Below are positions 18,801 to 31,615 of a stretch of DNA of 64,000 bases, in pieces. The notes under the pieces were generated by a model. It was not told the DNA's origin, ran no database searches, and saw nothing but the letters and a program-made list of their open reading frames with translations. Made by a program: the position numbers and the translations under genes. The stretch's first letter is position 1; every line of letters begins with the position of its first letter. Origin of the DNA: Sanghuangporus weigelae (taxonomy: Eukaryota > Basidiomycota > Agaricomycetes > Hymenochaetales > Hymenochaetaceae); NCBI GenBank assembly GCA_033182465.1, contig CP137324.1, forward strand, positions 1,426,001 to 1,490,000, read 5' to 3'.

Positions 18801-19249
18801 AAACCGAGTATGCTTGGCCAGCCGCACTTTCTGATACACGGGCGCCTGGAACGTTGCAACGGATGTATCGGCTACGGCGGCGGAAGGATATCGAACCGTT
18901 GAAAGGATCCGCTCAAAATCTCGCATCAGGATCAACGCGATCAACAGATCTACACGATCAGCTTTCCAAACGCGACCGGTAACCAAGCCAGCTATCAAAG
19001 GCCCAAGCAATCGAGCGGCCTAGGCAACAGTAACCCGTTACCACCCGAGCGCTAGAAGCACCGAAGCGGATACGTAATCCCGCTAACAGCTAACACCGCC
19101 GACCGCCTATTACCGCGGACTACCACTCTAACGCCGCCGACCAAGCAACCAGAGCGACCTCGATCAAAAGAAGCGATCAAACTTCTTAGAAGTCCAGAAG
19201 CACAACTACTAAAGCCTAAACGCTAAAAGGCTAAAGGCTAATAAGGTTT

Positions 19250-19891
19250 ATGGAGACCTCACTGGCATTTCAGCACTGTCAAGTCTGTGCACGAGTTTAC
19301 ATGGTCCTTTATGAAGTATACTACTTAGTATGCACGGCAACGGTTGGTACGCGTGACTGTCACATCGAAACCGAGCGACACCTTCAGGATACAATGCATT
19401 CCAATCCACCAAGCCCAATAGTACCCAAGAAACGAGAGGAACTCACGATCACAACTCGGACCCCTCGAACTGCGAACCCGATAACTTGGAGAATGATTGG
19501 ATGGTATAGACCGGAGTTGCACACACCATGTCCAGCATCTACGATACAGGCAAACCTTTATTTACCGAGAGATGCGAACCTGGAAACCAAGCAATTACAA
19601 CTCCTTATACAACGAAGGATATGGCGCTACATTCGAGATATACGATACGAAGGCAAAGCATGGCTAGTCACCAGAACCCAGCAGAACCCACCAGCAGAGC
19701 TTATGCAGTTCATGATATGCCTTGGACCATACTCTACACCGACCCGACACCTTAACACTGACGTGCGAGTTATGCTTACCCTCGCTGGACCTCGAGATGA
19801 ATTCCGAAGAATCACATACCGAGCAGCCTACATCGCTCCAAGAGCAAAGATGCCACTCAATGACGGCAATGACATCGTTATGGAGTACTGA
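19250..19891 (+). CDS. U3-encoded ORF in 5' LTR (213 aa, unknown)
   Basis: The longest open frame in the LTR lies wholly within U3, upstream of the TATA box, so the copy here should not be on the full-length transcript. Contents: Cys/Tyr-rich start, then a basic Pro/Arg/Thr/Leu-rich body (YLPRDANLETKQLQLLIQRR, AYIAPRAKMPL). A more natural start may be the internal Met before HSNPPSPIVPKKREE. I recognise no family. It may be chance: both LTRs being identical gives no information about selection. Confidence 0.35.
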   Translation: METSLAFQHCQVCARVYMVLYEVYYLVCTATVGTRDCHIETERHLQDTMHSNPPSPIVPKKREELTITTRTPRTANPITWRMIGWYRPELHTPCPASTIQANLYLPRDANLETKQLQLLIQRRIWRYIRDIRYEGKAWLVTRTQQNPPAELMQFMICLGPYSTPTRHLNTDVRVMLTLAGPRDEFRRITYRAAYIAPRAKMPLNDGNDIVMEY

Positions 19892-20106
19892 CAGCGGAGC
19901 ATTCCATATCGGAGCACCACCTCTATTGTCTCAGTCAGCAACTCCAAAGAATTCTGTCATAGTGGAGACGACCTTACAAAGATTGGAGCAAAGTGGAGCG
20001 AAGCGCAGCAGGATGACAAAGGAACAGATGTAATGGTGGAGGAAAGTGGAGTAAAGTGGAGACAGGATGAGTAAGAAATAGGACGGAAAATGGAATATCT
20101 GGGAGC

Positions 20107-20113
20107 ATAAATA
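20107..20113 (+). promoter_or_regulatory. TATA box of chromovirus promoter
   Basis: ATAAATA in the 5' LTR (30903-30909 in the 3' LTR). The sequence matching the primer-binding site begins 28 bp after its end, the usual distance to a transcript start. Confidence 0.65.
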
Positions 20114-20140
20114 GTTGTAGGATTAGGCCCTCATTTCCCC

Positions 20141-20152
20141 ATCTTTCGATCC
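20141..20152 (+). promoter_or_regulatory. inferred transcript 5' end, complementary to PBS
   Basis: ATCTTTCGATCC, perfectly complementary over 12 nt to 20414-20425. Position relative to the TATA box suggests these are the first nucleotides of the RNA, as in the Tf1/sushi self-priming mechanism. Confidence 0.6.
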
Positions 20153-20413
20153 TCTTAACACACTGGTGTAAAGCTTGCCCTACAGCGAACTATTACTGTG
20201 TGCTTTGTACTATCACGCCTCTTGGAAATCCCAATCTGCTTTACTATTACCTCGTATCTGAAAGCATCCATAACTCGGACCGCGACTAGGAAGGCTAGTA
20301 AGGGACCGCGTGGTACAGCCAGACGTGGGTAGATAAGATCACCTCTGCACAACACACCGCTGCTTAGGCAAAAGGATCAAACCGGTGTAACCCCGGGCCT
20401 ACTCCCTAACATT

Positions 20414-20472: not shown

Positions 20473-20814
20473 GTGTTTTATCGAGGCGAGGACCGTCGAC
20501 CTCAAGTCCCTATCGACGTCACTAGTTTCGAGACTAGTACCCATATCGAATCCTCAGGACAAGTGCACATCCTGGAGAACGACAAACCCGATTCACTTAA
20601 ATCACATATCTACTATCATAACCCCTACAACGACGAAGTGTACCTAATAGCAAAGGCATCTGGTAGCCCTGCAGTTGGGAGCACGCAAACAACAACCACG
20701 AAAGTAGCAGCAGTCCCTTCCACTATTGCTACATTCGACGAGAAAGGAACTACTTGGTTAACAGCACCAAGGAACAATAACCCTGAAGCATCAGGCGAGA
20801 AACGAAGTTCATGA
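20473..20814 (+). CDS. chromovirus ORF1 (113 aa, unknown)
   Basis: First AUG frame after the primer-binding site. Hydrophilic, with YYHNPYNDEVYLIAKASG in the middle and Ser/Thr/Asn-rich ends. Its stop overlaps the ORF2 start as ATGA (20811-20814), an arrangement seen where ribosomes terminate and restart. No family recognised. Confidence 0.5.
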   Translation: MFYRGEDRRPQVPIDVTSFETSTHIESSGQVHILENDKPDSLKSHIYYHNPYNDEVYLIAKASGSPAVGSTQTTTTKVAAVPSTIATFDEKGTTWLTAPRNNNPEASGEKRSS

Positions 20815-21845
20815 ACCGATCAGGAAACGCCAACAACAGAAGTAACGGTCATCGAACGAACGAACGGGCGAACGATAATCAAACGAGGTTCACACCTAGA
20901 TCCCTCGACGAACGAGTTCAACATATCACCAACAGGCTACGTAGTCTGGAAAGCGATCACGACATACTATACGCGACAACGAACCACAGCATATTGTATC
21001 CACCAGTGATCAGAAGGCTACAAGAAAGGGTTGAAAGACTGGAAGAACGAACTGCAAACACGGGGCAGTCAAACAGTCTACCAACCGGAGCATACGCGAC
21101 AGCAGTAGGAGATCGATTCGAAGCACTAGAAGCAACTACTCGAAGAATTGGAGCACAGGTAGCAGCTCTAGAGAGATATACTCTGGAATTGGATCGAGCA
21201 GCAGGGGCACTCAATCAACGGGTCATAGACGGGAACGGAGTACTTGACCGAGAGCTCAACGCTATCCGGAACAGGATTACGGCCCAGGAACAACAACTAC
21301 AGACGATTGAGACGAGAGTCGGAGAGCTTAACAGGACAGCTCTAGATCAACCAAGGATTGTTCAAGACATCCATAACCTGCGAGAAGCCCTACTCCAACT
21401 AGGACAAACAATCGAGTCGAGTCAACGCACCTACGCAGCTATACTCACATCGGTACAGACAACCGAAGCTACCTCAAGGAACATACTCGAACACGCTCAA
21501 CGAATTCGAGAAGTAGCTCAGGCAGCACAACGCTGGGAATACTTTCTACCAAGAGAGAGAGCCCAACAGGAACAGAGTTCTGACGAATCAGTGTCCTCAG
21601 ACGAAGAAGCATCACGAAGGCCATTCTTACTCAGAACCCCACCTCGAACGGTTATCATCCAAGTACCAACAGTACCTGCAGTACCCGCAAGTGGTTCAGT
21701 AGCAACCCAAGCGCCAGAGAATCCACCACCACCATCCTATTCACCACCAGCAGTGCCCATAAGCACTTACGATCATGTCGACAACCGACCAGAAGGTGCA
21801 AGCACTGGAGCAGCAACTACAGACTCTTCAGACACAACTCTCTAA
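20811..21845 (+). CDS. chromovirus ORF2, coiled-coil protein with PPxY motif (344 aa)
   Basis: Basic Asn/Arg-rich N-terminus, then a long heptad-rich region (about residues 25-245; RLRSLESDHDILY, RLQERVERLEERT, EQQLQTIETRVGELNR), an acidic Ser/Glu patch and a Pro-rich tail with PPPPSYSPP. PPSY fits the PPxY late-domain motif that recruits Nedd4-type ubiquitin ligases in retroviruses. The 3' end overlaps gag by 71 nt in another frame. It may be a structural partner of Gag, or the matrix-like part of a split Gag. No catalytic motif seen. Confidence 0.6.
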   Translation: MNRSGNANNRSNGHRTNERANDNQTRFTPRSLDERVQHITNRLRSLESDHDILYATTNHSILYPPVIRRLQERVERLEERTANTGQSNSLPTGAYATAVGDRFEALEATTRRIGAQVAALERYTLELDRAAGALNQRVIDGNGVLDRELNAIRNRITAQEQQLQTIETRVGELNRTALDQPRIVQDIHNLREALLQLGQTIESSQRTYAAILTSVQTTEATSRNILEHAQRIREVAQAAQRWEYFLPRERAQQEQSSDESVSSDEEASRRPFLLRTPPRTVIIQVPTVPAVPASGSVATQAPENPPPPSYSPPAVPISTYDHVDNRPEGASTGAATTDSSDTTL

Positions 21846-22863
21846 ACACAGCATCAAGCTTCCGAAGTACTATGGCAAGCGAAGCGAAGATATTGATCTG
21901 TGGATTAGTCGATGTATCTCGAAGCTGGCACAGCATGGAGTCAAGGATGAGGAGGAGATCGCAAAGAGCCTATTTGCGGCACTAGAAGGCGACAGCTACG
22001 ATTGGTTTGCAGAGAAGAATACCCTAACGTCATTCGATGCCAATGGGAAACTGAAACCAGTACCTGCGATTATCGCTGCAACAAATGGAATGTTCGCATC
22101 ACTCAAGGACATGCTGAACTGGATGAGGATCCGAGCAGGACATCCGATCATTGGAGAACAGGAAGCCCTATTCCAACTACTATGCATCCAGCAGAAAGGA
22201 GCAAGCATTAGGGCGTACAACGACGAATTCCGACGACTCAAAGCACGAGCACCAGACACGATGGATAAGCAGATGCTCAAGTACATCTATGTCAAAGGAC
22301 TAGACATGTGGGTCAAACGACGAGTCGAATCTGTACAACCCGACGCTTTCGAGAAGAACGACCTCGATGCATGGATGGAATGGACAAGCAACCTAGCAAA
22401 CTCTGATGCCAGGCAAAGGCTCATGGGTAGTCAAACATATACCCCAAGATTCAAATCGAATGGACAGTCATCTTTCCGACCACCAGTACAAACAACGAAA
22501 CGAGATCCAGACGCCATGGATGTAGATGCACTCCGAGGCTTGCCGAAGAAGGGAGGCAAATGCTACAACTGTGAAAAGTCAGGACATTACGCAAAGGATT
22601 GCAAGGCACCAAGGAAGCAAAAGGGTTCTTCCTCTAAGCGGCCGAAGAAGACTAATGGTGTAAAACGGAGGACGATGACAACACGAACAATCGATTTCAA
22701 GGAAACATGTCCCGATCCACACTGCCGAAGGCCAGTCCACTACGACCATGTAGCATGGGCTAAAGGCGATGAATCAGCAGGATGGACTTGCAAGCATGAC
22801 GAAGAATACCGAAACAACATTCGCAAATCCCTAGCAAGTAAAGAGCAACAGGGAAAAGATTAA
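21775..22863 (+). CDS. gag: Gag (capsid plus zinc knuckle, 362 aa)
   Basis: A short N-terminal heptad region (KVQALEQQLQTLQTQLSKH) leads into a retrotransposon-gag capsid-like domain (KLPKYYGKRSEDIDLWISRC ... FRRLKARAPDTMDKQML). A nucleocapsid zinc knuckle CYNCEKSGHYAKDC (CX2CX4HX4C, about residues 262-275) is followed by a basic tail and a second Cys/His cluster (CPDPHCRRPVHYDHV). It ends ...QQGKD with TAA at 22861-22863. The heptamer G GGA AAA lies two codons before the stop, in the phase needed for -1 slippage, and the pol frame is open beneath it. Confidence 0.9.
   Translation: MSTTDQKVQALEQQLQTLQTQLSKHSIKLPKYYGKRSEDIDLWISRCISKLAQHGVKDEEEIAKSLFAALEGDSYDWFAEKNTLTSFDANGKLKPVPAIIAATNGMFASLKDMLNWMRIRAGHPIIGEQEALFQLLCIQQKGASIRAYNDEFRRLKARAPDTMDKQMLKYIYVKGLDMWVKRRVESVQPDAFEKNDLDAWMEWTSNLANSDARQRLMGSQTYTPRFKSNGQSSFRPPVQTTKRDPDAMDVDALRGLPKKGGKCYNCEKSGHYAKDCKAPRKQKGSSSKRPKKTNGVKRRTMTTRTIDFKETCPDPHCRRPVHYDHVAWAKGDESAGWTCKHDEEYRNNIRKSLASKEQQGKD
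22851..22857 (+). promoter_or_regulatory. candidate -1 ribosomal frameshift site
   Basis: GGGAAAA in Gag phase reads caG GGA AAA gat, an X XXY YYZ heptamer. Slipping back one base enters the pol frame, which has no stop from here to 27446. A possible downstream stem pairs CATCG (22870-22874) with CGATG (22887-22891). Confidence 0.55.
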
Positions 22864-22967: not shown

Positions 22968-25900
22968 ATGTACAATAAGCGATTGCCAATACAAGCATTG
23001 CATCCCCGATTACCTATTCGAGTGAAGGTTGGAACAAAGACCCTAGCAGTCAAAGCGTTAATCGATTCCGGAGCTACATGCAGCACGATACACCCCAACT
23101 TGGTACGACACTACAGCCTATTCAAAAAGAGGCTTGATCACCCTCGACCTTTGAATAATGCGGATGGAAGTCCCAACCAAGGAGGAGCAATCACGCACGA
23201 GGTCTACACATTAATTTTTGATGGACCTAAACCGCAGCCACAAACGTTGGCAGTAGCAACCACAGGACAGGATCAGGTGATCCTAGGAATTGACTATTTG
23301 GCCAAAGTCAATCCCGAAATTGATTGGAAGAATCAAGTATGGAATCGGAATGGTAATTCGATACCATTCGAGCTCAACGTCATACGAGCTACCAAGAAGC
23401 GAAGGCACAGGAAGCGCAAACGGAAACGGCAAACGAAAGGCAAACCTGACAAGACAAGACCTAGGCATAACACGAAGCAACAGGCTCAGGACAGAGACAA
23501 CTATCGACACTCTGGAGCACCAGGAATAATATTTGCGCCAAGGAGAGACAACAACGGACACTCTCACGAAACGAAGCCACAAGCGAAGCCGGAAACCAGA
23601 CCAGCAACACCAAGACTGGAACAGGCAAAACAGACGCCAGAAGTGAAGAGTCCGAGCACGGAAAATATACCAGACTCTGCAACGAAACAGCCACAACAGG
23701 AAACGGCAAACAAGCATCATCGAGATGAGGAGGAAATAAACTACACTCCCAAGCGATGGAAGAAACAGGCACCACAAGGAACGAGTATAGTGCAACGACG
23801 ACCAAGGCACATACCGAGACGGATGATCCCAGCATGGCAATTGTACCAGACATCCGAAGGCGAAACAGAAGAGATAACAGGCAAGCATAGCCTAGACGAA
23901 CAGGAGGAAATAAACGACTCTCCGAAACGTTGGAAGAAACAACCACCACAGAAGATACATCCACTGAGGCAAAACATGCCGGAAGATGAAGAACTCTGGC
24001 CATCACCAGAAGAAAACCCGGGCATGAAGTATAGGATACGACCACGAAAGACACGGTATCCAGAGAAGCCAGTGGCAGGCATTATACGACCGAGAACGGC
24101 ATCGTTAATGCGAGGAGCTAGTCCCACACCGAAGCGTACAAGATGGGCAGACAACGAAAGCGATATCGAGATGCAAGACGAGCAGGAGACAACAGAAGAC
24201 ACTCCTATGCACGATATAGAGCCAGAAGACATTGAAAGTCTTAGGACGACCAACCAACCAGCTACCCTTACCAGAAAGGAAGAGCTCGCTGCAAAGCTAG
24301 AGCTAGACATCAATCGAAATTGGTCACCAAGGCAGCAGAACCAAGTCTCACAGCCTCTGAACAAAGCGAGTTCAGTATCCCAGCAGTATTCTCAACAAAA
24401 GGCAGCTGCAGAAGGACTACTAGGAACACAGAAACGAGATTGGCGAAAACTCCTACCAAAGGAAATAGAAGACTACGCAGATGTCTTTGATCCTGACAAG
24501 TCAAGAAGGTTACCCAAGCATACGAAATGGGATATGGCAATTAACCTCAAAGAAGGAGTACCATTACCGAAACCGAGGCCTATTATCAAGCTCACACGAG
24601 AAGAGCAGGCAGCACTCGATGCTTATGTCAAAGAGTTACTTGACAAAGGATGGATTGAAAAGGTTCAACCACATGAACCATGTCCGGTAGCAGCACCAGT
24701 CTTCTTTGTAGGAAAGAAAGACGGAGGAGCACGAGCAGTAACCGATTACCGAGACATCAACGACACGACAGTATCAGATCCATACCCGATACCGATCATG
24801 AGTGTTCTCCCAGAGAAACTGGAGAAAGGAAAATTCTTCTTTACACTCGACATGCGATCAGGTTACAACAACCTGCGAATCCGAGAAGGAGACGAGTGGA
24901 AGGCAGCATTCCGAGTTGGCAATGCAGTCTACAAGCCAAAGGTCATGATGTTTGGAATGAAGAACTCACCTGCAGTATTCCAACGATTCATGAATGACAA
25001 CTTCGAATATTGGCTCAGGACAGAAGAAGCACTCAACTATTTGGACGACCTTATTGGTCAAGCACAAACTGAAGAGGAACATTGGAAACTCCTCAGGGCA
25101 ATTCTACAGAAATGCCGAGAGCTCGACATCTACCTCAAAATCGAGAAATGTCACTTCCTCCAAACCCAGCTCGACTACTTGGGATTTGTAGTAGGAACGA
25201 AAGGCATCCAGATGGATCCTTATAAGCTCAAAGCTATTCACGAATGGCCAGTGCCAAAGACGAAACGACAAGTTCGAAAGTTCCAAGGATTTTGTAACTT
25301 CTACCGAAGATTCATCAGGAACTATGCCGATACATTCGCACCTATTGGCGACCTTATCAAAAAGGATCGCAAGTTCATATGGGCAGAGGCACAAGACAAA
25401 GCATTCGAAAGTATCAAGAAGGCATTCGAAACGGAAGTCGCATTGGCAATGCCAAAGCCAGACAAATCATACACATTGGAAACCGACGCATCCGATGTAG
25501 CGATTGGTGCAGTCTTACAACAAGAAGACAACCAAGGAGAACTGAGACCTTTAGGTTTCATGTCGAAAACTCTAACGAACACCCAACGAAACTATCCGAC
25601 GCATGACAAAGAGATGCTAGCAATCATGGAAGCACTCAAGCATTGGAGACACCTATTGGAGGGAACCAAAGAACCAGTAACAATCCGAAGCGATCATGCA
25701 AACCTCCGATACTTCATGACAGCTCAGAATCTATCGAGACGTCAAGCGAGATGGGCATTAGAGTTATCACGATATAACTTCAAGATTCTCCATTGGCCAG
25801 GCAAGAAGAACCAAGCTGACGAGCTATCACGACGATCCGACTATATGCCAGAGGACAAGGACAACTTAGGAGTTACCTTATTACCTCCTGATACGATCAA

Positions 25901-27446
25901 GCAACAAACATTGCGACGCACAGAGATCAACGGTCTATACAAGCTAGAAACTGAAATGGTCACTATCTCTGATCCTATTATCCGAACGATCAAGAGGAAC
26001 TACAATACCGAGGAGGCTAAGAAGGAAATTCAGGCGATCAAGCAGAGCAACGGCTACAGTTACAGGAACGGCTTGCACTACGTAACCAATGCATTATATA
26101 TCCCGCCGTCCGCCAACCTACGAGCGTTGCTAATCCGAAGGCGCCATGATCACAAACTTGCAGGCCACCCAGGAGCAGAAAAGACCATAGAGCTTGTAAA
26201 GCGATCATACTATTGGCCGAAGATGGAAGAAATGATCCGAGCATATACCGCAACCTGCGACATATGTCAGCGTGCAAAACCGATTCGACAGTTTCGAAAT
26301 CCGCCGCTCCAACCGTTGGAGGCACCACATCAACCATGGGAAACCATAACCTGTGACCTGATTACCGACTTACCAGTCAGCAATGAAGGCTACAGTGCGA
26401 TACTCGTTATAGTGGACAAACTCACTAAAATGGGGAAGTTCATTCCTTGCCAAGGAATACCCAATGCTAAGCAGTTGGCACGTTTGTTCCGCCAACATGT
26501 CTTCAAATACTACGGGGCCCCTAAACGAGTAATCTCCGACCGAGGTAGCAACTTCACCGCGCAATTCCTCAAGGAGTTCTGCAGACTCATCGATGTCGAT
26601 TGGAAAACTAGTACAGCGTATCATCCACAAACCGATGGTCAAACCGAGCGACTAAATCAAGAGCTTGAACAGTACTTACGCTGCTATGTGTCCTACCGAC
26701 AAACAGATTGGGCAGAGTACATCGATATAGCAGAATTCGCCTACAACAACAGGAAGCACAGTACTACACATCAGTCACCATTCTATACACTGTATGGATG
26801 GCATCCTCACCTGGACGTTGCGGAGACCGGTGATTCAAACGTCCCAGAAGCAATAAATCACCTAGAGGAGCTTCGACAAGTACAGCAAGAAGCCTATAAT
26901 TCGATTAGGCAAGCGAATGAGGCAATGAAGCTTTATGCAGACCTGCATCGAGGCAAACTGCCAGAGTACAAGCCAGGAGACGAAGTGTTACTAGACATGA
27001 GGAATCTCAGTCGATTGGAACCAACGAAGAAACTTGCAATGAAATGGGCAGGGCCTTATAAAGTCGAGAAGGCAGTCGGACAAGTGTCATTCAGATTACG
27101 CTTACCCGAAACCCTTCCGATCCACCCAGTGTTTCATGCGAGTCTTCTCAGGCCTTACAAACGAAAGGAATACCCTGGAAGACCCACTTTGGATGAACCA
27201 CCACCTATTGAAGTGGAGGGAGAAGCAGAGTACGAAGTGGAGACAATTCATAACACAAGACGTCATCGGAGCAAGGTCCAATACCTTATCCAATGGAAAG
27301 GATACCAGGAGCGAACATGGGAGCCACTTGACAACCTCAAGAACTCCTATCAAATGATCGAAGCATTCCATAAAAAGTATCCTCAGGCAATCCAGCCACC
27401 GAACCTTAACCAATGGATCGCCGCACGAAAACGAATGAGGCAATAG
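22968..27446 (+). CDS. pol: Pol: protease, RT, RNase H, integrase, chromodomain
   Basis: 1492 aa from the ATG at 22968; if frameshifted from Gag it gains about 37 residues. Aspartic protease motif LIDSGAT is at residues 31-37. A ~350-residue Lys/Pro/Gln-rich linker follows, with an internal repeat (EEINYTPKRWKKQ near 253 and EEINDSPKRWKKQ near 311). RT shows the catalytic YLDD near 691. RNase H follows (LETDASD...HDKEMLAIMEAL...RSDH). Integrase has an HHCC zinc site (HKLAGHPG...CDICQRAK), then the DDE triad (TCDLITDLP, ISDRGSNF, RLNQELEQ), GPY/F module (KWAGPYKVEKA) and a C-terminal chromodomain (YLIQWKGYQERTWEPLDNL, ~1440). No stops: likely active. Confidence 0.95.
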   Translation: MYNKRLPIQALHPRLPIRVKVGTKTLAVKALIDSGATCSTIHPNLVRHYSLFKKRLDHPRPLNNADGSPNQGGAITHEVYTLIFDGPKPQPQTLAVATTGQDQVILGIDYLAKVNPEIDWKNQVWNRNGNSIPFELNVIRATKKRRHRKRKRKRQTKGKPDKTRPRHNTKQQAQDRDNYRHSGAPGIIFAPRRDNNGHSHETKPQAKPETRPATPRLEQAKQTPEVKSPSTENIPDSATKQPQQETANKHHRDEEEINYTPKRWKKQAPQGTSIVQRRPRHIPRRMIPAWQLYQTSEGETEEITGKHSLDEQEEINDSPKRWKKQPPQKIHPLRQNMPEDEELWPSPEENPGMKYRIRPRKTRYPEKPVAGIIRPRTASLMRGASPTPKRTRWADNESDIEMQDEQETTEDTPMHDIEPEDIESLRTTNQPATLTRKEELAAKLELDINRNWSPRQQNQVSQPLNKASSVSQQYSQQKAAAEGLLGTQKRDWRKLLPKEIEDYADVFDPDKSRRLPKHTKWDMAINLKEGVPLPKPRPIIKLTREEQAALDAYVKELLDKGWIEKVQPHEPCPVAAPVFFVGKKDGGARAVTDYRDINDTTVSDPYPIPIMSVLPEKLEKGKFFFTLDMRSGYNNLRIREGDEWKAAFRVGNAVYKPKVMMFGMKNSPAVFQRFMNDNFEYWLRTEEALNYLDDLIGQAQTEEEHWKLLRAILQKCRELDIYLKIEKCHFLQTQLDYLGFVVGTKGIQMDPYKLKAIHEWPVPKTKRQVRKFQGFCNFYRRFIRNYADTFAPIGDLIKKDRKFIWAEAQDKAFESIKKAFETEVALAMPKPDKSYTLETDASDVAIGAVLQQEDNQGELRPLGFMSKTLTNTQRNYPTHDKEMLAIMEALKHWRHLLEGTKEPVTIRSDHANLRYFMTAQNLSRRQARWALELSRYNFKILHWPGKKNQADELSRRSDYMPEDKDNLGVTLLPPDTIKQQTLRRTEINGLYKLETEMVTISDPIIRTIKRNYNTEEAKKEIQAIKQSNGYSYRNGLHYVTNALYIPPSANLRALLIRRRHDHKLAGHPGAEKTIELVKRSYYWPKMEEMIRAYTATCDICQRAKPIRQFRNPPLQPLEAPHQPWETITCDLITDLPVSNEGYSAILVIVDKLTKMGKFIPCQGIPNAKQLARLFRQHVFKYYGAPKRVISDRGSNFTAQFLKEFCRLIDVDWKTSTAYHPQTDGQTERLNQELEQYLRCYVSYRQTDWAEYIDIAEFAYNNRKHSTTHQSPFYTLYGWHPHLDVAETGDSNVPEAINHLEELRQVQQEAYNSIRQANEAMKLYADLHRGKLPEYKPGDEVLLDMRNLSRLEPTKKLAMKWAGPYKVEKAVGQVSFRLRLPETLPIHPVFHASLLRPYKRKEYPGRPTLDEPPPIEVEGEAEYEVETIHNTRRHRSKVQYLIQWKGYQERTWEPLDNLKNSYQMIEAFHKKYPQAIQPPNLNQWIAARKRMRQ

Positions 27447-27621: not shown

Positions 27622-28698
27622 ATGGAGAACTTCGAGCTAAGGAACAACAACTCGAATCTCAACAGCTCTACTTCACTGCAGACGAACTACTACTCAGCTA
27701 TGCCTATCTTCGATGAGCTACATGCATTCTGTCAACCAGAAGATGCACCAGAATGGACATTTGCACTTAGGCCACCGACCGAACGTTATCAATGGCCACA
27801 GCTGTGCAACCGATTCAACGAAGAGAACTACGAAGACGAAATCGTACCCCTATGCCCAGGAAAGTACTTCGACGATCTATTTGACAAGTGGAATGCAGTC
27901 CACCACAACCGAGACGAAATACCCCATCTTATGATGGCGAATCACTCAGACGAGTGGTTATTCAAACTCAGTAACCCTCGAGACGCAGCATTACGCCGAC
28001 TCAATGATGATGCATTTCTAACCTACGCGATCGAACTCGAAACACAAGCATTACATCGAGGCAAGATCGACTTTAGGCACGAAACGACATACAAGAACAT
28101 CATGGGCATCTATCATTCGGCAATTCAAATTTGCGCCTACCGACGAGACATGACTACCGCAATTCTTAACCGAATGATGCGATGGAGTCACTATCATCCG
28201 ATGAGCATCGATGCGATGAAGTACATTATATACATAGCCGACCAGACGGGCTTCTATGCATCCCACACCATGCAGTTCATGACGGTACTCAACATGACGA
28301 AGTATTACGAAGGAACGAGATACCGAACGGTTATTGAAGCGAGGAACTCTACTACGGACGAGGTACCACTCGACAACATCGAGCACCACGTAGTCGAAGG
28401 CAAAGAGGTTAACTACGACCCTCATTACCTTATGGAACTCAACAACCGAGAGGAAGAAGCCAGAGAGAAACTACAGGCTACACGACACCCATTGCTGGAA
28501 GATCTGATGATCTCAGTCTACCAGTACCCGAACGAACTCTACCAGCCGGACGAGATGCTTACTATGTCGGAACAGGAGGACATGTACATACACTCCGACG
28601 ATACAGAGTCAAGTGAAGAAGGTGAAAGCAGGGAACTATATACCCCAGCGAACTCGGCCCAGACTACACCTGAGGCTGAAGAATCCGAAGATTTGTAA
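27622..28698 (+). CDS. chromovirus ORF5 after pol (358 aa, unknown)
   Basis: Open frame 3' of pol with the same codon style as gag and pol. Start may be here or at the Met before PIFDELHAF. The body is rich in aromatic and acidic residues (ALRPPTERYQWPQLCNRFNE, MRWSHYHPMSIDAMKYII) and ends in a Ser/Glu/Asp-rich acidic tail. No signal peptide, membrane span or fusion-peptide-like stretch, so it does not look like an envelope protein. Position matches the env slot. It may be reached by a spliced or internal message. No family recognised. Confidence 0.55.
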   Translation: MENFELRNNNSNLNSSTSLQTNYYSAMPIFDELHAFCQPEDAPEWTFALRPPTERYQWPQLCNRFNEENYEDEIVPLCPGKYFDDLFDKWNAVHHNRDEIPHLMMANHSDEWLFKLSNPRDAALRRLNDDAFLTYAIELETQALHRGKIDFRHETTYKNIMGIYHSAIQICAYRRDMTTAILNRMMRWSHYHPMSIDAMKYIIYIADQTGFYASHTMQFMTVLNMTKYYEGTRYRTVIEARNSTTDEVPLDNIEHHVVEGKEVNYDPHYLMELNNREEEAREKLQATRHPLLEDLMISVYQYPNELYQPDEMLTMSEQEDMYIHSDDTESSEEGESRELYTPANSAQTTPEAEESEDL

Positions 28699-29255
28699 AC
28701 AACTCTTCTTTTATGCAACCCCTTTCCCATGTCGTGACCCGACATGGTCAATTATGCATTTCATTCTTACCTTATGATATTTATGGTCACATCCGACCAA
28801 ATTATGCTTTATGCACCTCTTTATTTCACGCTTATTCGGCCAACCAGCACAAATGAAGCACTATGCAGAAGTGTCAAAGAACCTACAAGGGCCTAGACAT
28901 TTTGTATATTGTTTTATTGTGCCGGCGCCGAATTGGCAGATTATGCCTACCTTTTATTATCCTCTATGCAACGGAGAAGCCAAAAAGGTTACGTGAAGTC
29001 ACTCCCTTGCATTATGCTAGGATGTGCCTTCACGCTGAAAGGCACTCCAATTACACTCTTTCTTCGAAAAACTCCATTTGGGGGTTGAAGAGCCGTAGGT
29101 AAACACCTGGAACTTCACTCCCAAATTGGTATAAAACTTATTCATTAACGACTTAATGATTTTAATGACTTTATAATTTCTTTCTTATCACTTTCAATTG
29201 CGTCATATTCTTTACATGATGCACATTTCATATTCATATCCCTTCCCACCACCCT
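28699..29255. other. chromovirus 3' non-coding region
   Basis: About 560 bp, AT-rich on the sense strand, with no credible sense frame. It lies downstream of the antisense gene that follows and would hold that gene's 3' end. Confidence 0.4.
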
Positions 29256-29571
29256 TTACAAGTCAATGTCTTCCCAGACACCCTTTTCACGACGTTCCTG
29301 CGAAGCAATACCTGCATTTTCGACGACTGGATCGATATCCTCAACGTCATAACCGAGCGCGAGGTGAACTCGAAGCGCAACAGTCGTAACATCGCGCTGG
29401 AACGATTGCATTTCAAAGTCGGCCTCCTAGAGGAAGATTAACGACTTGAAACGGCACAGAGCATGCATCACTTACCTGAGCACGCCTCTTACGCTCCAAA
29501 ATCCAATGATTTATGCCGAAAATCGCGACAATAACGACAAAAACAGTAACAGCAGCGGCGACTTTCGACAT
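29256..29571 (-). CDS. antisense spliced small membrane protein inside chromovirus (88 aa)
   Basis: On minus, exon 1 29571-29476 starts MSKVAAAVTVFVVIVAIFG, one hydrophobic span of ~17 residues near the N-terminus, followed by a basic patch (ERKRRAQ). A canonical 49-nt intron follows (CAG|GTAAGT...CTCTAG|GAG, 29475-29427). Exon 2 29426-29256 adds 56 residues, amphipathic then acidic (VALRVHLALGYDVEDIDPVV ... GVWEDIDL) and a TAA stop. Positive-inside logic predicts a single-pass protein with a cytosolic C-terminus. I know no matching family. An intron on the antisense strand cannot derive from the reverse-transcribed sense genome, so the gene was either captured as DNA or evolved within the element. 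Confidence 0.5.
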
Positions 29572-29682
29572 TTTGGAGCAGAGATGATGATGGTCTGATA
29601 GCAAAAATCAACCATCACTAGGCGACCCTTTATCCGAGCTTTCTCACGGATTAGGATGAACATTTCTCCGAAAGTTCATCTT

Positions 29683-29690
29683 AGGGGGGG
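29683..29690 (+). other. polypurine tract
   Basis: AGGGGGGG just upstream of the 3' LTR, the expected primer for plus-strand DNA synthesis. Five bases (TGTAG) separate it from the part of the LTR shared with the 5' copy. Confidence 0.65.
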
Positions 29691-29695
29691 TGTAG

Positions 29696-31207
29696 TGAAA
29701 GGATCCGCTCAAAATCTCGCATCAGGATCAACGCGATCAACAGATCTACACGATCAGCTTTCCAAACGCGACCGGTAACCAAGCCAGCTATCAAAGGCCC
29801 AAGCAATCGAGCGGCCTAGGCAACAGTAACCCGTTACCACCCGAGCGCTAGAAGCACCGAAGCGGATACGTAATCCCGCTAACAGCTAACACCGCCGACC
29901 GCCTATTACCGCGGACTACCACTCTAACGCCGCCGACCAAGCAACCAGAGCGACCTCGATCAAAAGAAGCGATCAAACTTCTTAGAAGTCCAGAAGCACA
30001 ACTACTAAAGCCTAAACGCTAAAAGGCTAAAGGCTAATAAGGTTTATGGAGACCTCACTGGCATTTCAGCACTGTCAAGTCTGTGCACGAGTTTACATGG
30101 TCCTTTATGAAGTATACTACTTAGTATGCACGGCAACGGTTGGTACGCGTGACTGTCACATCGAAACCGAGCGACACCTTCAGGATACAATGCATTCCAA
30201 TCCACCAAGCCCAATAGTACCCAAGAAACGAGAGGAACTCACGATCACAACTCGGACCCCTCGAACTGCGAACCCGATAACTTGGAGAATGATTGGATGG
30301 TATAGACCGGAGTTGCACACACCATGTCCAGCATCTACGATACAGGCAAACCTTTATTTACCGAGAGATGCGAACCTGGAAACCAAGCAATTACAACTCC
30401 TTATACAACGAAGGATATGGCGCTACATTCGAGATATACGATACGAAGGCAAAGCATGGCTAGTCACCAGAACCCAGCAGAACCCACCAGCAGAGCTTAT
30501 GCAGTTCATGATATGCCTTGGACCATACTCTACACCGACCCGACACCTTAACACTGACGTGCGAGTTATGCTTACCCTCGCTGGACCTCGAGATGAATTC
30601 CGAAGAATCACATACCGAGCAGCCTACATCGCTCCAAGAGCAAAGATGCCACTCAATGACGGCAATGACATCGTTATGGAGTACTGACAGCGGAGCATTC
30701 CATATCGGAGCACCACCTCTATTGTCTCAGTCAGCAACTCCAAAGAATTCTGTCATAGTGGAGACGACCTTACAAAGATTGGAGCAAAGTGGAGCGAAGC
30801 GCAGCAGGATGACAAAGGAACAGATGTAATGGTGGAGGAAAGTGGAGTAAAGTGGAGACAGGATGAGTAAGAAATAGGACGGAAAATGGAATATCTGGGA
30901 GCATAAATAGTTGTAGGATTAGGCCCTCATTTCCCCATCTTTCGATCCTCTTAACACACTGGTGTAAAGCTTGCCCTACAGCGAACTATTACTGTGTGCT
31001 TTGTACTATCACGCCTCTTGGAAATCCCAATCTGCTTTACTATTACCTCGTATCTGAAAGCATCCATAACTCGGACCGCGACTAGGAAGGCTAGTAAGGG
31101 ACCGCGTGGTACAGCCAGACGTGGGTAGATAAGATCACCTCTGCACAACACACCGCTGCTTAGGCAAAAGGATCAAACCGGTGTAACCCCGGGCCTACTC
31201 CCTAACA
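29696..31207 (+). repeat. 3' long terminal repeat
   Basis: Repeats the 5' LTR base for base as far as I checked. The five bases before it (TGTAG, 29691-29695) directly follow the polypurine tract and may belong to the true LTR start, since TGTAG pairs with the CTAACA end as an imperfect short inverted repeat. Confidence 0.9.
30046..30687 (+). CDS. U3-encoded ORF in 3' LTR (213 aa, unknown)
   Basis: Identical frame in the 3' LTR. Here it would be the last frame of the genomic transcript, or the frame of any message started inside the element, which makes this copy the better candidate for expression. Function unknown. Confidence 0.35.
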   Translation: METSLAFQHCQVCARVYMVLYEVYYLVCTATVGTRDCHIETERHLQDTMHSNPPSPIVPKKREELTITTRTPRTANPITWRMIGWYRPELHTPCPASTIQANLYLPRDANLETKQLQLLIQRRIWRYIRDIRYEGKAWLVTRTQQNPPAELMQFMICLGPYSTPTRHLNTDVRVMLTLAGPRDEFRRITYRAAYIAPRAKMPLNDGNDIVMEY

Positions 31208-31615
31208 GCGCATCCCGATCGGCGGCAGTGCTTCCGGGTCAAATTGTCCGCCACAGCACCAAGCTGTCCAGGAGGTCTAGCCACGAGTTGGATCCCTTCT
31301 TACCTCTCCGATCTTTGACACCGCCGACGCCTCTCTGTGGTCGAACGCCGTCGCCTTCGCCGCTGCTTAAGAGAGTCTGATAGTCTACAGCGGTTGGACA
31401 ATTAGACGGACTCAAGGATACTTCTTGGTGGCCTGTATGAATGGTACGCGTTCTTGGTGAGAGTGGTACGTCGTGGCCAACACGAGTTTACCACCGGCAC
31501 GTCCTGCTGATTTGATGCATAAGAGGCACTTGCAAAACCTCTCTTTTCTTCTCTGAAGGTAGAGTTCGAAGTAGAAATAACAAGATATATGCGTTGAAGA
31601 ACTTACAGTTGACAT

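What the first reader, a model, noticed from the sequence alone, without database searches (positions are those of the whole stretch)
29256..29571. Spliced antisense membrane-protein gene inside a chromovirus
On minus, between the last sense ORF and the 3' LTR, two exons joined by a textbook 49-nt intron (CAG|GTAAGT...CTCTAG) encode an 88-aa protein with one clear membrane span and a basic stop-transfer patch. Fungal Ty3/gypsy elements are not known to me to carry such a gene. An intron readable only on the antisense strand survives retrotransposition, so it could be a lasting part of the element, perhaps a host gene captured as DNA, or a regulator or membrane factor of its own.
Basis: partly seen in the sequence, partly recalled or inferred. 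Interest (0 to 1): 0.8.

Follow-up and report, generated by a model that had tools for sequence, protein, structure and literature searches.

The report
Spliced antisense membrane-protein gene in retrotransposon
A jumping element present in about a hundred copies in a medicinal mushroom carries, on its opposite strand, a small intron-containing gene for a membrane protein that selection has kept intact across copies and in a related species, probably as an accessory gene of the element.

Summary
In detail: exon 1 (29571-29476), a 49-nt GT-AG intron and exon 2 (29426-29256) on the minus strand encode an 88-aa single-span protein inside a Ty3/gypsy chromovirus with identical 1512-nt LTRs. It is not chance. 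Of 69 other copies fetched (of at least 108), 67 keep the frame and splice sites, one has a stop, one shows no match there. Exon lengths stay constant while the intron is 48, 49 or 50 nt, so only the spliced reading keeps the frame. Amino-acid changes are depleted in this frame and in no sense-strand frame; three element lineages give dN/dS 0.23-0.43. Annotated 88-aa proteins occur in Sanghuangporus weigelae (97%) and S. baumii (58-64%); one S. baumii tag is consecutive with that of the element's sense ORF3. No copy outside the element was found. Best reading: a retrotransposon accessory gene, expressed from its own antisense promoter, making an N-out/C-in membrane protein. Expression and target are unproven; exons as a whole diverge as much as the intron, so the case rests on codon positions, frame and homologues. 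[quoted passage not shown] Botrytis Boty): a new variant of a known kind.

The parts
18900..20411 (+). 5' LTR (1512 nt, TG...CA)
   Evidence: 1513 positions compared with the 3' LTR, one mismatch, at the last base, i.e. just outside TG...CA; repeat found
20811..21845 (+). ORF0, 344 aa, upstream of and overlapping gag; no Pfam match
21775..22863 (+). gag, 362 aa, with CCHC zinc knuckle
   Evidence: zf-CCHC 8e-6; two gag/capsid matches below their curated cut-offs
22968..27446 (+). pol, 1492 aa: protease (below cut-off), RT, RNase H, integrase, chromodomain
27700..28698 (+). ORF3, sense accessory ORF from MPIFDEL; open in 55 of 59 rows
29256..29426 (-). antisense gene, exon 2 (codons 33-88 and stop)
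29427..29475 (-). antisense intron, 49 nt, GT-AG, phase 0
   Evidence: 50 nt in L048 and L068
29476..29571 (-). antisense gene, exon 1 (codons 1-32): membrane span and basic patch
29572..29691 (-). strongly conserved leader and putative antisense promoter up to the polypurine tract, with three inverted repeats
   Evidence: 93% and 86% identical to L068 and L048; 0.125 variants per base among copies, the lowest of nine regions; fold z -1.8/-1.9, not better than two comparison stretches
29683..29695 (+). polypurine tract AGGGGGGG and 5 bases before the 3' LTR
   Evidence: sequence; function as polypurine tract inferred from position
29696..31207 (+). 3' LTR, carrying a 213-aa sense ORF at 30046-30687

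Best explanation
The frame is a real, spliced accessory gene of this Sanghuangporus chromovirus, kept by purifying selection. Shown: the spliced frame is open in 67 of 69 fetched copies, exon lengths are fixed while intron length drifts, amino-acid changes are depleted, and a second species has the same protein, in one case with a locus tag consecutive with that of the same sense ORF. Inferred: it is transcribed antisense from its own promoter in the conserved block 29572-29691, the intron is removed only from that transcript, and it survives transposition because the genomic RNA carries its complement, in which the splice signals are unreadable. The protein is predicted to be a single-pass membrane protein with a very short N-terminus outside (or in the lumen), one span (about residues 4-25), a basic stop-transfer patch and a 56-residue acidic cytosolic tail. 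Most likely mechanism (inference, weak): a membrane-anchored adaptor whose conserved tail motifs (EMQSF-like beside the membrane; NAGIASQE and GxWE near the end) bind Gag or a host factor, so that it acts in trans on particle assembly, location or host restriction, as small membrane accessory proteins of retroviruses do. About 0.9 for a real spliced gene under selection, 0.7 for serving the element, 0.25 for this adaptor mechanism.
For: All 66 fetched copies of the window's lineage (20 distinct proteins) keep 96+171-nt exons, one frame and GT-AG, intron 49 nt (65) or 48 nt (1); L048 is open with a 50-nt intron. Variants in 59 rows: 32 synonymous where 19.5 are expected, P about 0.0005; exon 1 (P 0.0055) and exon 2 (P 0.011) each, although they lie in different unspliced frames; the three sense frames of the span and the two other antisense frames show no excess. 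dN/dS 0.23, 0.29, 0.43 between three lineages. Window-L048 amino-acid identity is 48 of 88 against 39.2 expected from the same substitutions placed at random (P 0.003). 88-aa homologues in S. weigelae and S. baumii, with consecutive tags ACEPAG_5826 (this protein) and ACEPAG_5827 (ORF3).
Against: No transcript or protein evidence was available; the S. baumii and S. weigelae gene models are automatic (BRAKER3, PMC12001456 passages). Overall the exons are no less divergent than the intron: 31% and 30% against 33% for window-L048, and 0.26 and 0.22 variants per base against 0.18 among copies. dS above 1 is near saturation. Absence of stops alone is weak (P 0.09; 0.02 and 0.11). L068 has one in-frame stop in exon 2; L069 shows no match past window 29155. 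The conserved upstream block could serve the sense RNA or plus-strand priming instead of an antisense promoter; the stretch downstream of the gene is also well conserved to L068 (76 of 87 aligned bases, 26 gap columns). The fold model is weak (mean pLDDT 63) and no domain is significant, so binding partners are a guess.
Confidence: 0.68

Rival explanations
1. A host gene for a small membrane protein was inserted, as DNA in reverse orientation with its intron, into an ancestral element and has travelled with it since.
For: A phase-0 intron with ordinary splice signals and a compact gene layout look like an ordinary fungal gene; an intron in this orientation would survive copying.
Against: No copy outside the element among 108 listed exon-2 places; protein searches found only Sanghuangporus hypothetical proteins; the capture would predate the split of three element lineages. 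The genome search scores only the best candidates and its list was cut, so a distant host homologue could be missed.
Confidence: 0.2
2. The working product is the antisense RNA (promoter interference or double-stranded RNA that limits the element); the protein is secondary.
For: Antisense transcripts of retroelements can have RNA roles (PMC7264820, parts 1-2 read; PMC10186651, passages read); the upstream block is the most conserved part among copies.
Against: An RNA role does not predict the codon-position signal confined to one spliced frame or constant exon length.
Confidence: 0.08
3. The 88-aa frame is a by-product of other constraints (sense-strand signals, recent amplification of near-identical copies) and not a gene.
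For: Many copies are nearly identical, so their intact frames are not independent; exons as a whole diverge as much as the intron; the region also holds structured, conserved noncoding sequence.
Against: Selection test and its frame controls, three lineages, a second species with the same length at 58-64% identity, shuffles.
Confidence: 0.04

Closest known systems
Antisense additional ORFs between pol and 3' LTR (aORF-3R) of plant Ty3/gypsy elements: Grande gene23, RIRE2, Retand (PMC7264820, parts 1-2 of 3 read; PMC11963269, abstract and passages read)
   Same: Position between pol and 3' LTR, antisense, present in most copies, own promoter reported for Grande gene23, function unknown
   Different: Those described have nuclear or DNA-related features (gene23 nuclear; Retand TRP28 domain); this one is an 88-aa membrane protein, spliced, in a basidiomycete chromovirus. 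No direct sequence comparison with them was made; Pfam gave no match
Boty retrotransposon of Botrytis cinerea and its antisense gene brtn (Boty named in PMC7264820; brtn in passages and a reference title of PMC8365987; original paper Zhao et al. 2011 not read)
   Same: Fungal LTR element with an antisense gene between pol and 3' LTR
   Different: Ascomycete host; no intron or membrane span is mentioned in what I read; brtn sequence was not compared
Antisense genes of retroviruses: HIV-1 asp (hydrophobic, membrane-associated product) and HTLV-2 APH-2 (spliced antisense transcript) (PMC10186651, abstract and passages read)
   Same: Antisense gene; ASP is membrane-associated, APH-2 comes from a spliced antisense transcript
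   Different: Transcribed from the 3' LTR; asp overlaps env, whereas here no sense ORF of 80 aa or more overlaps; no sequence relation claimed or tested
Small membrane accessory proteins of retroviruses such as Vpu (recalled, no call)
   Same: Size class, one span, basic patch then acidic cytosolic tail (recalled)
   Different: Sense-strand gene, animal virus; resemblance of layout only, no homology tested

Membership tests
Ty3/gypsy chromovirus (the element) | RT-RNase H before integrase, with a C-terminal chromodomain | tested here: met
   RVT_1 582-741, RNase H 805-936, rve 1121-1220, Chromo 1422-1470 (E 3.9e-10)
Ty3/gypsy chromovirus (the element) | Two LTRs, TG...CA, polypurine tract before the 3' LTR | tested here: met
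   no matching short target duplication seen at the window copy (flanks printed)
aORF-3R antisense accessory gene | ORF antisense to gag-pol between pol and 3' LTR | tested here: met
aORF-3R antisense accessory gene | Present in most copies and conserved like other element proteins | tested here: met
   67 of 69 fetched copies open (40 of 108 listed places not fetched); among copies the ratio to expectation is 0.43 against 0.55 for ORF3; between window and L068 dN/dS is 0.29 against 0.14 for ORF3 (dS saturated) and 0.16 for part of pol
aORF-3R antisense accessory gene | Transcribed antisense from its own promoter (reported for Grande gene23) | not testable with these tools
   no RNA data; conserved block 29572-29691 is only suggestive
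Boty brtn family | Sequence homology to brtn | not tested
   brtn sequence not held; profile search of the protein database listed only Sanghuangporus proteins (7 with E <= 10 among 1188 candidates)
Env-like protein | Sense ORF between pol and 3' LTR whose product has transmembrane domains (PMC7264820) | tested here: not met
   has a span but is antisense, 88 aa
Known protein domain family (Pfam) | Match above curated cut-off | tested here: not met
   0 families at E 0.01; only weak matches (best for any member 0.0058, Insulin_TMD; AAA_lid_3 0.029 in 4 of 8 members, UBA_6 0.19 in 1 of 8)

The most novel reading that the evidence does not exclude
A fungal retrotransposon has evolved a strand-partitioned accessory gene: an intron that can only be removed from antisense mRNA, encoding a membrane protein that acts in trans on host membranes or on particle traffic (assembly at membranes, passage between nuclei or cells of the mycelium, or removal of a host restriction factor), the first of its kind outside retroviruses.
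Probability: 0.2. Interest if true: 0.85.

Novelty: new variant of a known kind. Interest (0 to 1): 0.6.

Why it matters
Antisense genes of LTR retrotransposons are a known puzzle with no established function (PMC7264820). Here one has an intron that marks its transcript unambiguously, so expression can be tested by looking for one splice junction in ordinary strand-specific RNA data. It also offers about a hundred copies and a second species for selection tests. A selected membrane protein in an element thought to be purely intracellular would suggest an unknown membrane step, or a conflict with the host, in the life of fungal chromoviruses.

Tried and rejected
Chance or artefact: rejected by shuffles, frame controls and relatives. 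Sense-strand coding in the same span as the source of the signal: no excess of silent changes in any sense frame. As a caution, one antisense frame of the ORF3 span shows a signal (134 synonymous against 95 expected), which I put down to its third positions overlying those of ORF3; such tests are only safe where no sense gene overlaps.

Domain and fold: Pfam at lax cut-off and solved structures (two matches, E 0.42 and 0.97) gave nothing significant; weak, mutually similar hints to UBA-like and AAA-lid helical hairpins in the tail are only a lead. The structure model of the 88-aa protein (S. weigelae form, 5-row alignment) has mean pLDDT 63 and that of ORF3 36.9, too low for a fold search, so none was run.

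Conserved upstream block as RNA structure: energy z -1.8 and -1.9 on the two strands, while two other stretches taken for comparison gave -2.1 (28800-28919) and -3.0 (29050-29169); two pairs with changes on both sides. Inconclusive.

Literature: 10 searches, two of them on Sanghuangporus genomes and two on Boty/brtn. No paper on a spliced or membrane-coding antisense gene in a fungal LTR element appeared in the listings, which showed only the first 10-12 of 55, 68 and 74 papers; subscription papers are largely outside this library.

A first ORF3 intactness count (44 of 59) started at 27622, in a variable leader; counted from MPIFDEL (27700) it is 55 of 59. One of those 59 rows (L063) has other sequence in place of ORF3, which adds noise to the ORF3 rows.

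Full report
What is there. The window lies in contig C7 of a 33.87-Mb, 13-contig genome. Its contig count and longest contig (C1, 4,491,666 bases) fit the published Sanghuangporus weigelae assembly (13 contigs, longest 4.49 Mb; stated size 33.96 Mb, slightly larger; PMC10803629, passages read), so I take the host to be that species. The finding sits in a full-length LTR retrotransposon: LTRs 18900-20411 and 29696-31207 (1512 nt, identical), ORF0, gag with a CCHC knuckle, a pol with RT, RNase H, integrase and chromodomain, a sense ORF3 without known domain, and the antisense gene, then a polypurine tract and the 3' LTR.

The gene. On the minus strand exon 1 (96 nt), a 49-nt intron (GTAAGT...CTCTAG) and exon 2 (171 nt) give an 88-residue protein. 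Residues about 4-25 form one hydrophobic span (best 19-residue hydropathy 2.41), followed by a basic patch (+3 over residues 26-31) and a tail with net charge -9. By the positive-inside rule (established knowledge) this predicts N-out/C-in. Shuffled sequence gives a spliced frame of 85 aa or more in 6 of 1500 cases and none with a span; 4 of 496 window tiles give such a frame, 2 with a span, the gene's own tiles included.

Copies. The protein search of the genome lists 108 exon-2 places (its list was cut, and L068's exon 2 is not among them), and 104 exact matches to a degenerate tail pattern were counted against 0 for its reversed control. The 108 rows report either no stop (1) or one TAG (107), which I read as the splice acceptor itself at the edge of the match. 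106 of 108 have an ORF3 match on the opposite strand within 2.6 kb; the exceptions are L063, for which an unpaired ORF3 match lies about 14 kb away and may have been split off by an insertion (inferred), and L048, which adjoins an element LTR. Of the 69, all 66 of the window's lineage are open with GT-AG (20 distinct proteins; introns: 65 of 49 nt, one of 48), L048 is open with a 50-nt intron, L068 has one in-frame stop and a 50-nt intron, and L069 shows no match past window 29155 in the stretch fetched. Exon lengths are the same in all that have the gene, while intron lengths of 48, 49 and 50 leave different remainders modulo three: only splicing reconciles them.

Selection. In 59 rows (window plus 58 copies) 62 variants fall in the coding exons: 32 synonymous against 19.5 expected from the same mutation classes with CpG context, no stop against 2.4 expected (P about 0.0005 and 0.09, same counts). 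The amino-acid-changing to silent ratio is 0.43 of expectation, compared with 0.55 for ORF3 and 0.31 for an ORF in the LTR; wrong antisense frames give 1.55 and 2.02, sense frames of the same span 0.90-1.65. Between lineages, dN/dS is 0.23 (window-L048), 0.29 (window-L068) and 0.43 (L048-L068), compared with 0.14 for ORF3 (dS 2.4, saturated) and 0.16 for part of pol between window and L068. In the old copy L068 the compared stretches hold 10 stops in pol, 3 in ORF3 and 1 in the antisense gene, roughly in proportion to length. So the antisense gene is constrained, less than pol and ORF3 by the between-lineage measure. dS near 1.2 is close to saturation and L048 and L068 are old copies, so these ratios are rough. 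Against my reading, total divergence of the exons equals that of the intron (31% and 30% against 33%) and variants per base among copies are not lower in the exons (0.26 and 0.22 against 0.18): the signal lies in codon positions, frame, exon length and homologues, not in overall conservation.

Other species. A search of 5.8 billion proteins found five relatives with the window protein and seven with a profile, all Sanghuangporus: S. weigelae (97%), five 88-aa forms of S. baumii (58-64%), and one more distant 91-aa S. baumii protein (46%). The S. baumii proteins ACEPAG_5826 (this family) and ACEPAG_5827 (ORF3 family) bear consecutive locus tags, which I read as the same element layout in that species. 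ORF3 relatives also occur in S. sanghuang and S. vaninii, where no antisense relative was found; repeats were masked before annotation (PMC12001456, passages read), so that absence means little.

How it probably works. Among copies the 120 nt between the start codon and the polypurine tract have the fewest variants per base of nine regions. They are 93% and 86% identical to L068 and L048, against 67-71% for the introns, 70% for the ORF3 stretch and 77-79% for pieces that include the LTR, aligned to L068; but a pol stretch (88%) and the stretch downstream of the gene (87% of aligned bases, with gaps) are also well conserved. The block holds a GATAAAGG about 60 nt before the ATG and a CATCATC leader, which I read as a possible promoter, as well as three inverted repeats that might instead serve the sense RNA. 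The inferred cycle: the sense transcript from the 5' LTR is the genome and never shows the intron as such; an antisense transcript from this block is spliced and translated; the protein is inserted in a membrane with its tail in the cytosol. Tail motifs conserved across lineages (EMQSF-like, NAGIASQE, GxWE, W not readable in L068) suggest a binding partner. That it serves the element rather than the host, and what it binds, are inferences.

What is known. [quoted passage not shown] PMC8365987 passages; PMC11963269 passages). A spliced antisense transcript and an antisense membrane-associated protein are known from retroviruses (PMC10186651 passages). A spliced antisense gene for a membrane protein in a fungal chromovirus did not appear in the listings of ten searches. 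I therefore call it a new variant of a known kind.

Noticed in passing
30046-30687 (also 19250-19891 in the 5' LTR): The LTR itself carries a 213-aa sense ORF, intact (55) or with an in-frame indel only (1) in 59 rows, constrained among copies (ratio 0.31 of expectation) and between lineages (dN/dS 0.24 and 0.23), though with 2 and 4 stops in the old copies L048 and L068; no Pfam match. A protein-coding LTR is unusual.
   Followed up: partly
27700-28698: ORF3, a sense ORF downstream of pol with no Pfam match, has relatives in four Sanghuangporus species (50-98%) and dN/dS 0.14 to L068 (dS saturated); model confidence too low to name a fold.
   Followed up: partly
20811-21845: ORF0, 344 aa, upstream of and overlapping gag, without Pfam match.
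   Followed up: no
29572-29691: Three inverted repeats in tandem just before the polypurine tract, in the region with fewest variants among copies.
   Followed up: partly
29150-29166: A 17-nt stretch downstream of the antisense gene is absent in 33 of 59 rows and may mark subfamilies.
   Followed up: no
18890-18899 and 31208-31218: No short target-site duplication is visible around the window's element although its LTRs are identical; recombination between copies is possible.
   Followed up: no
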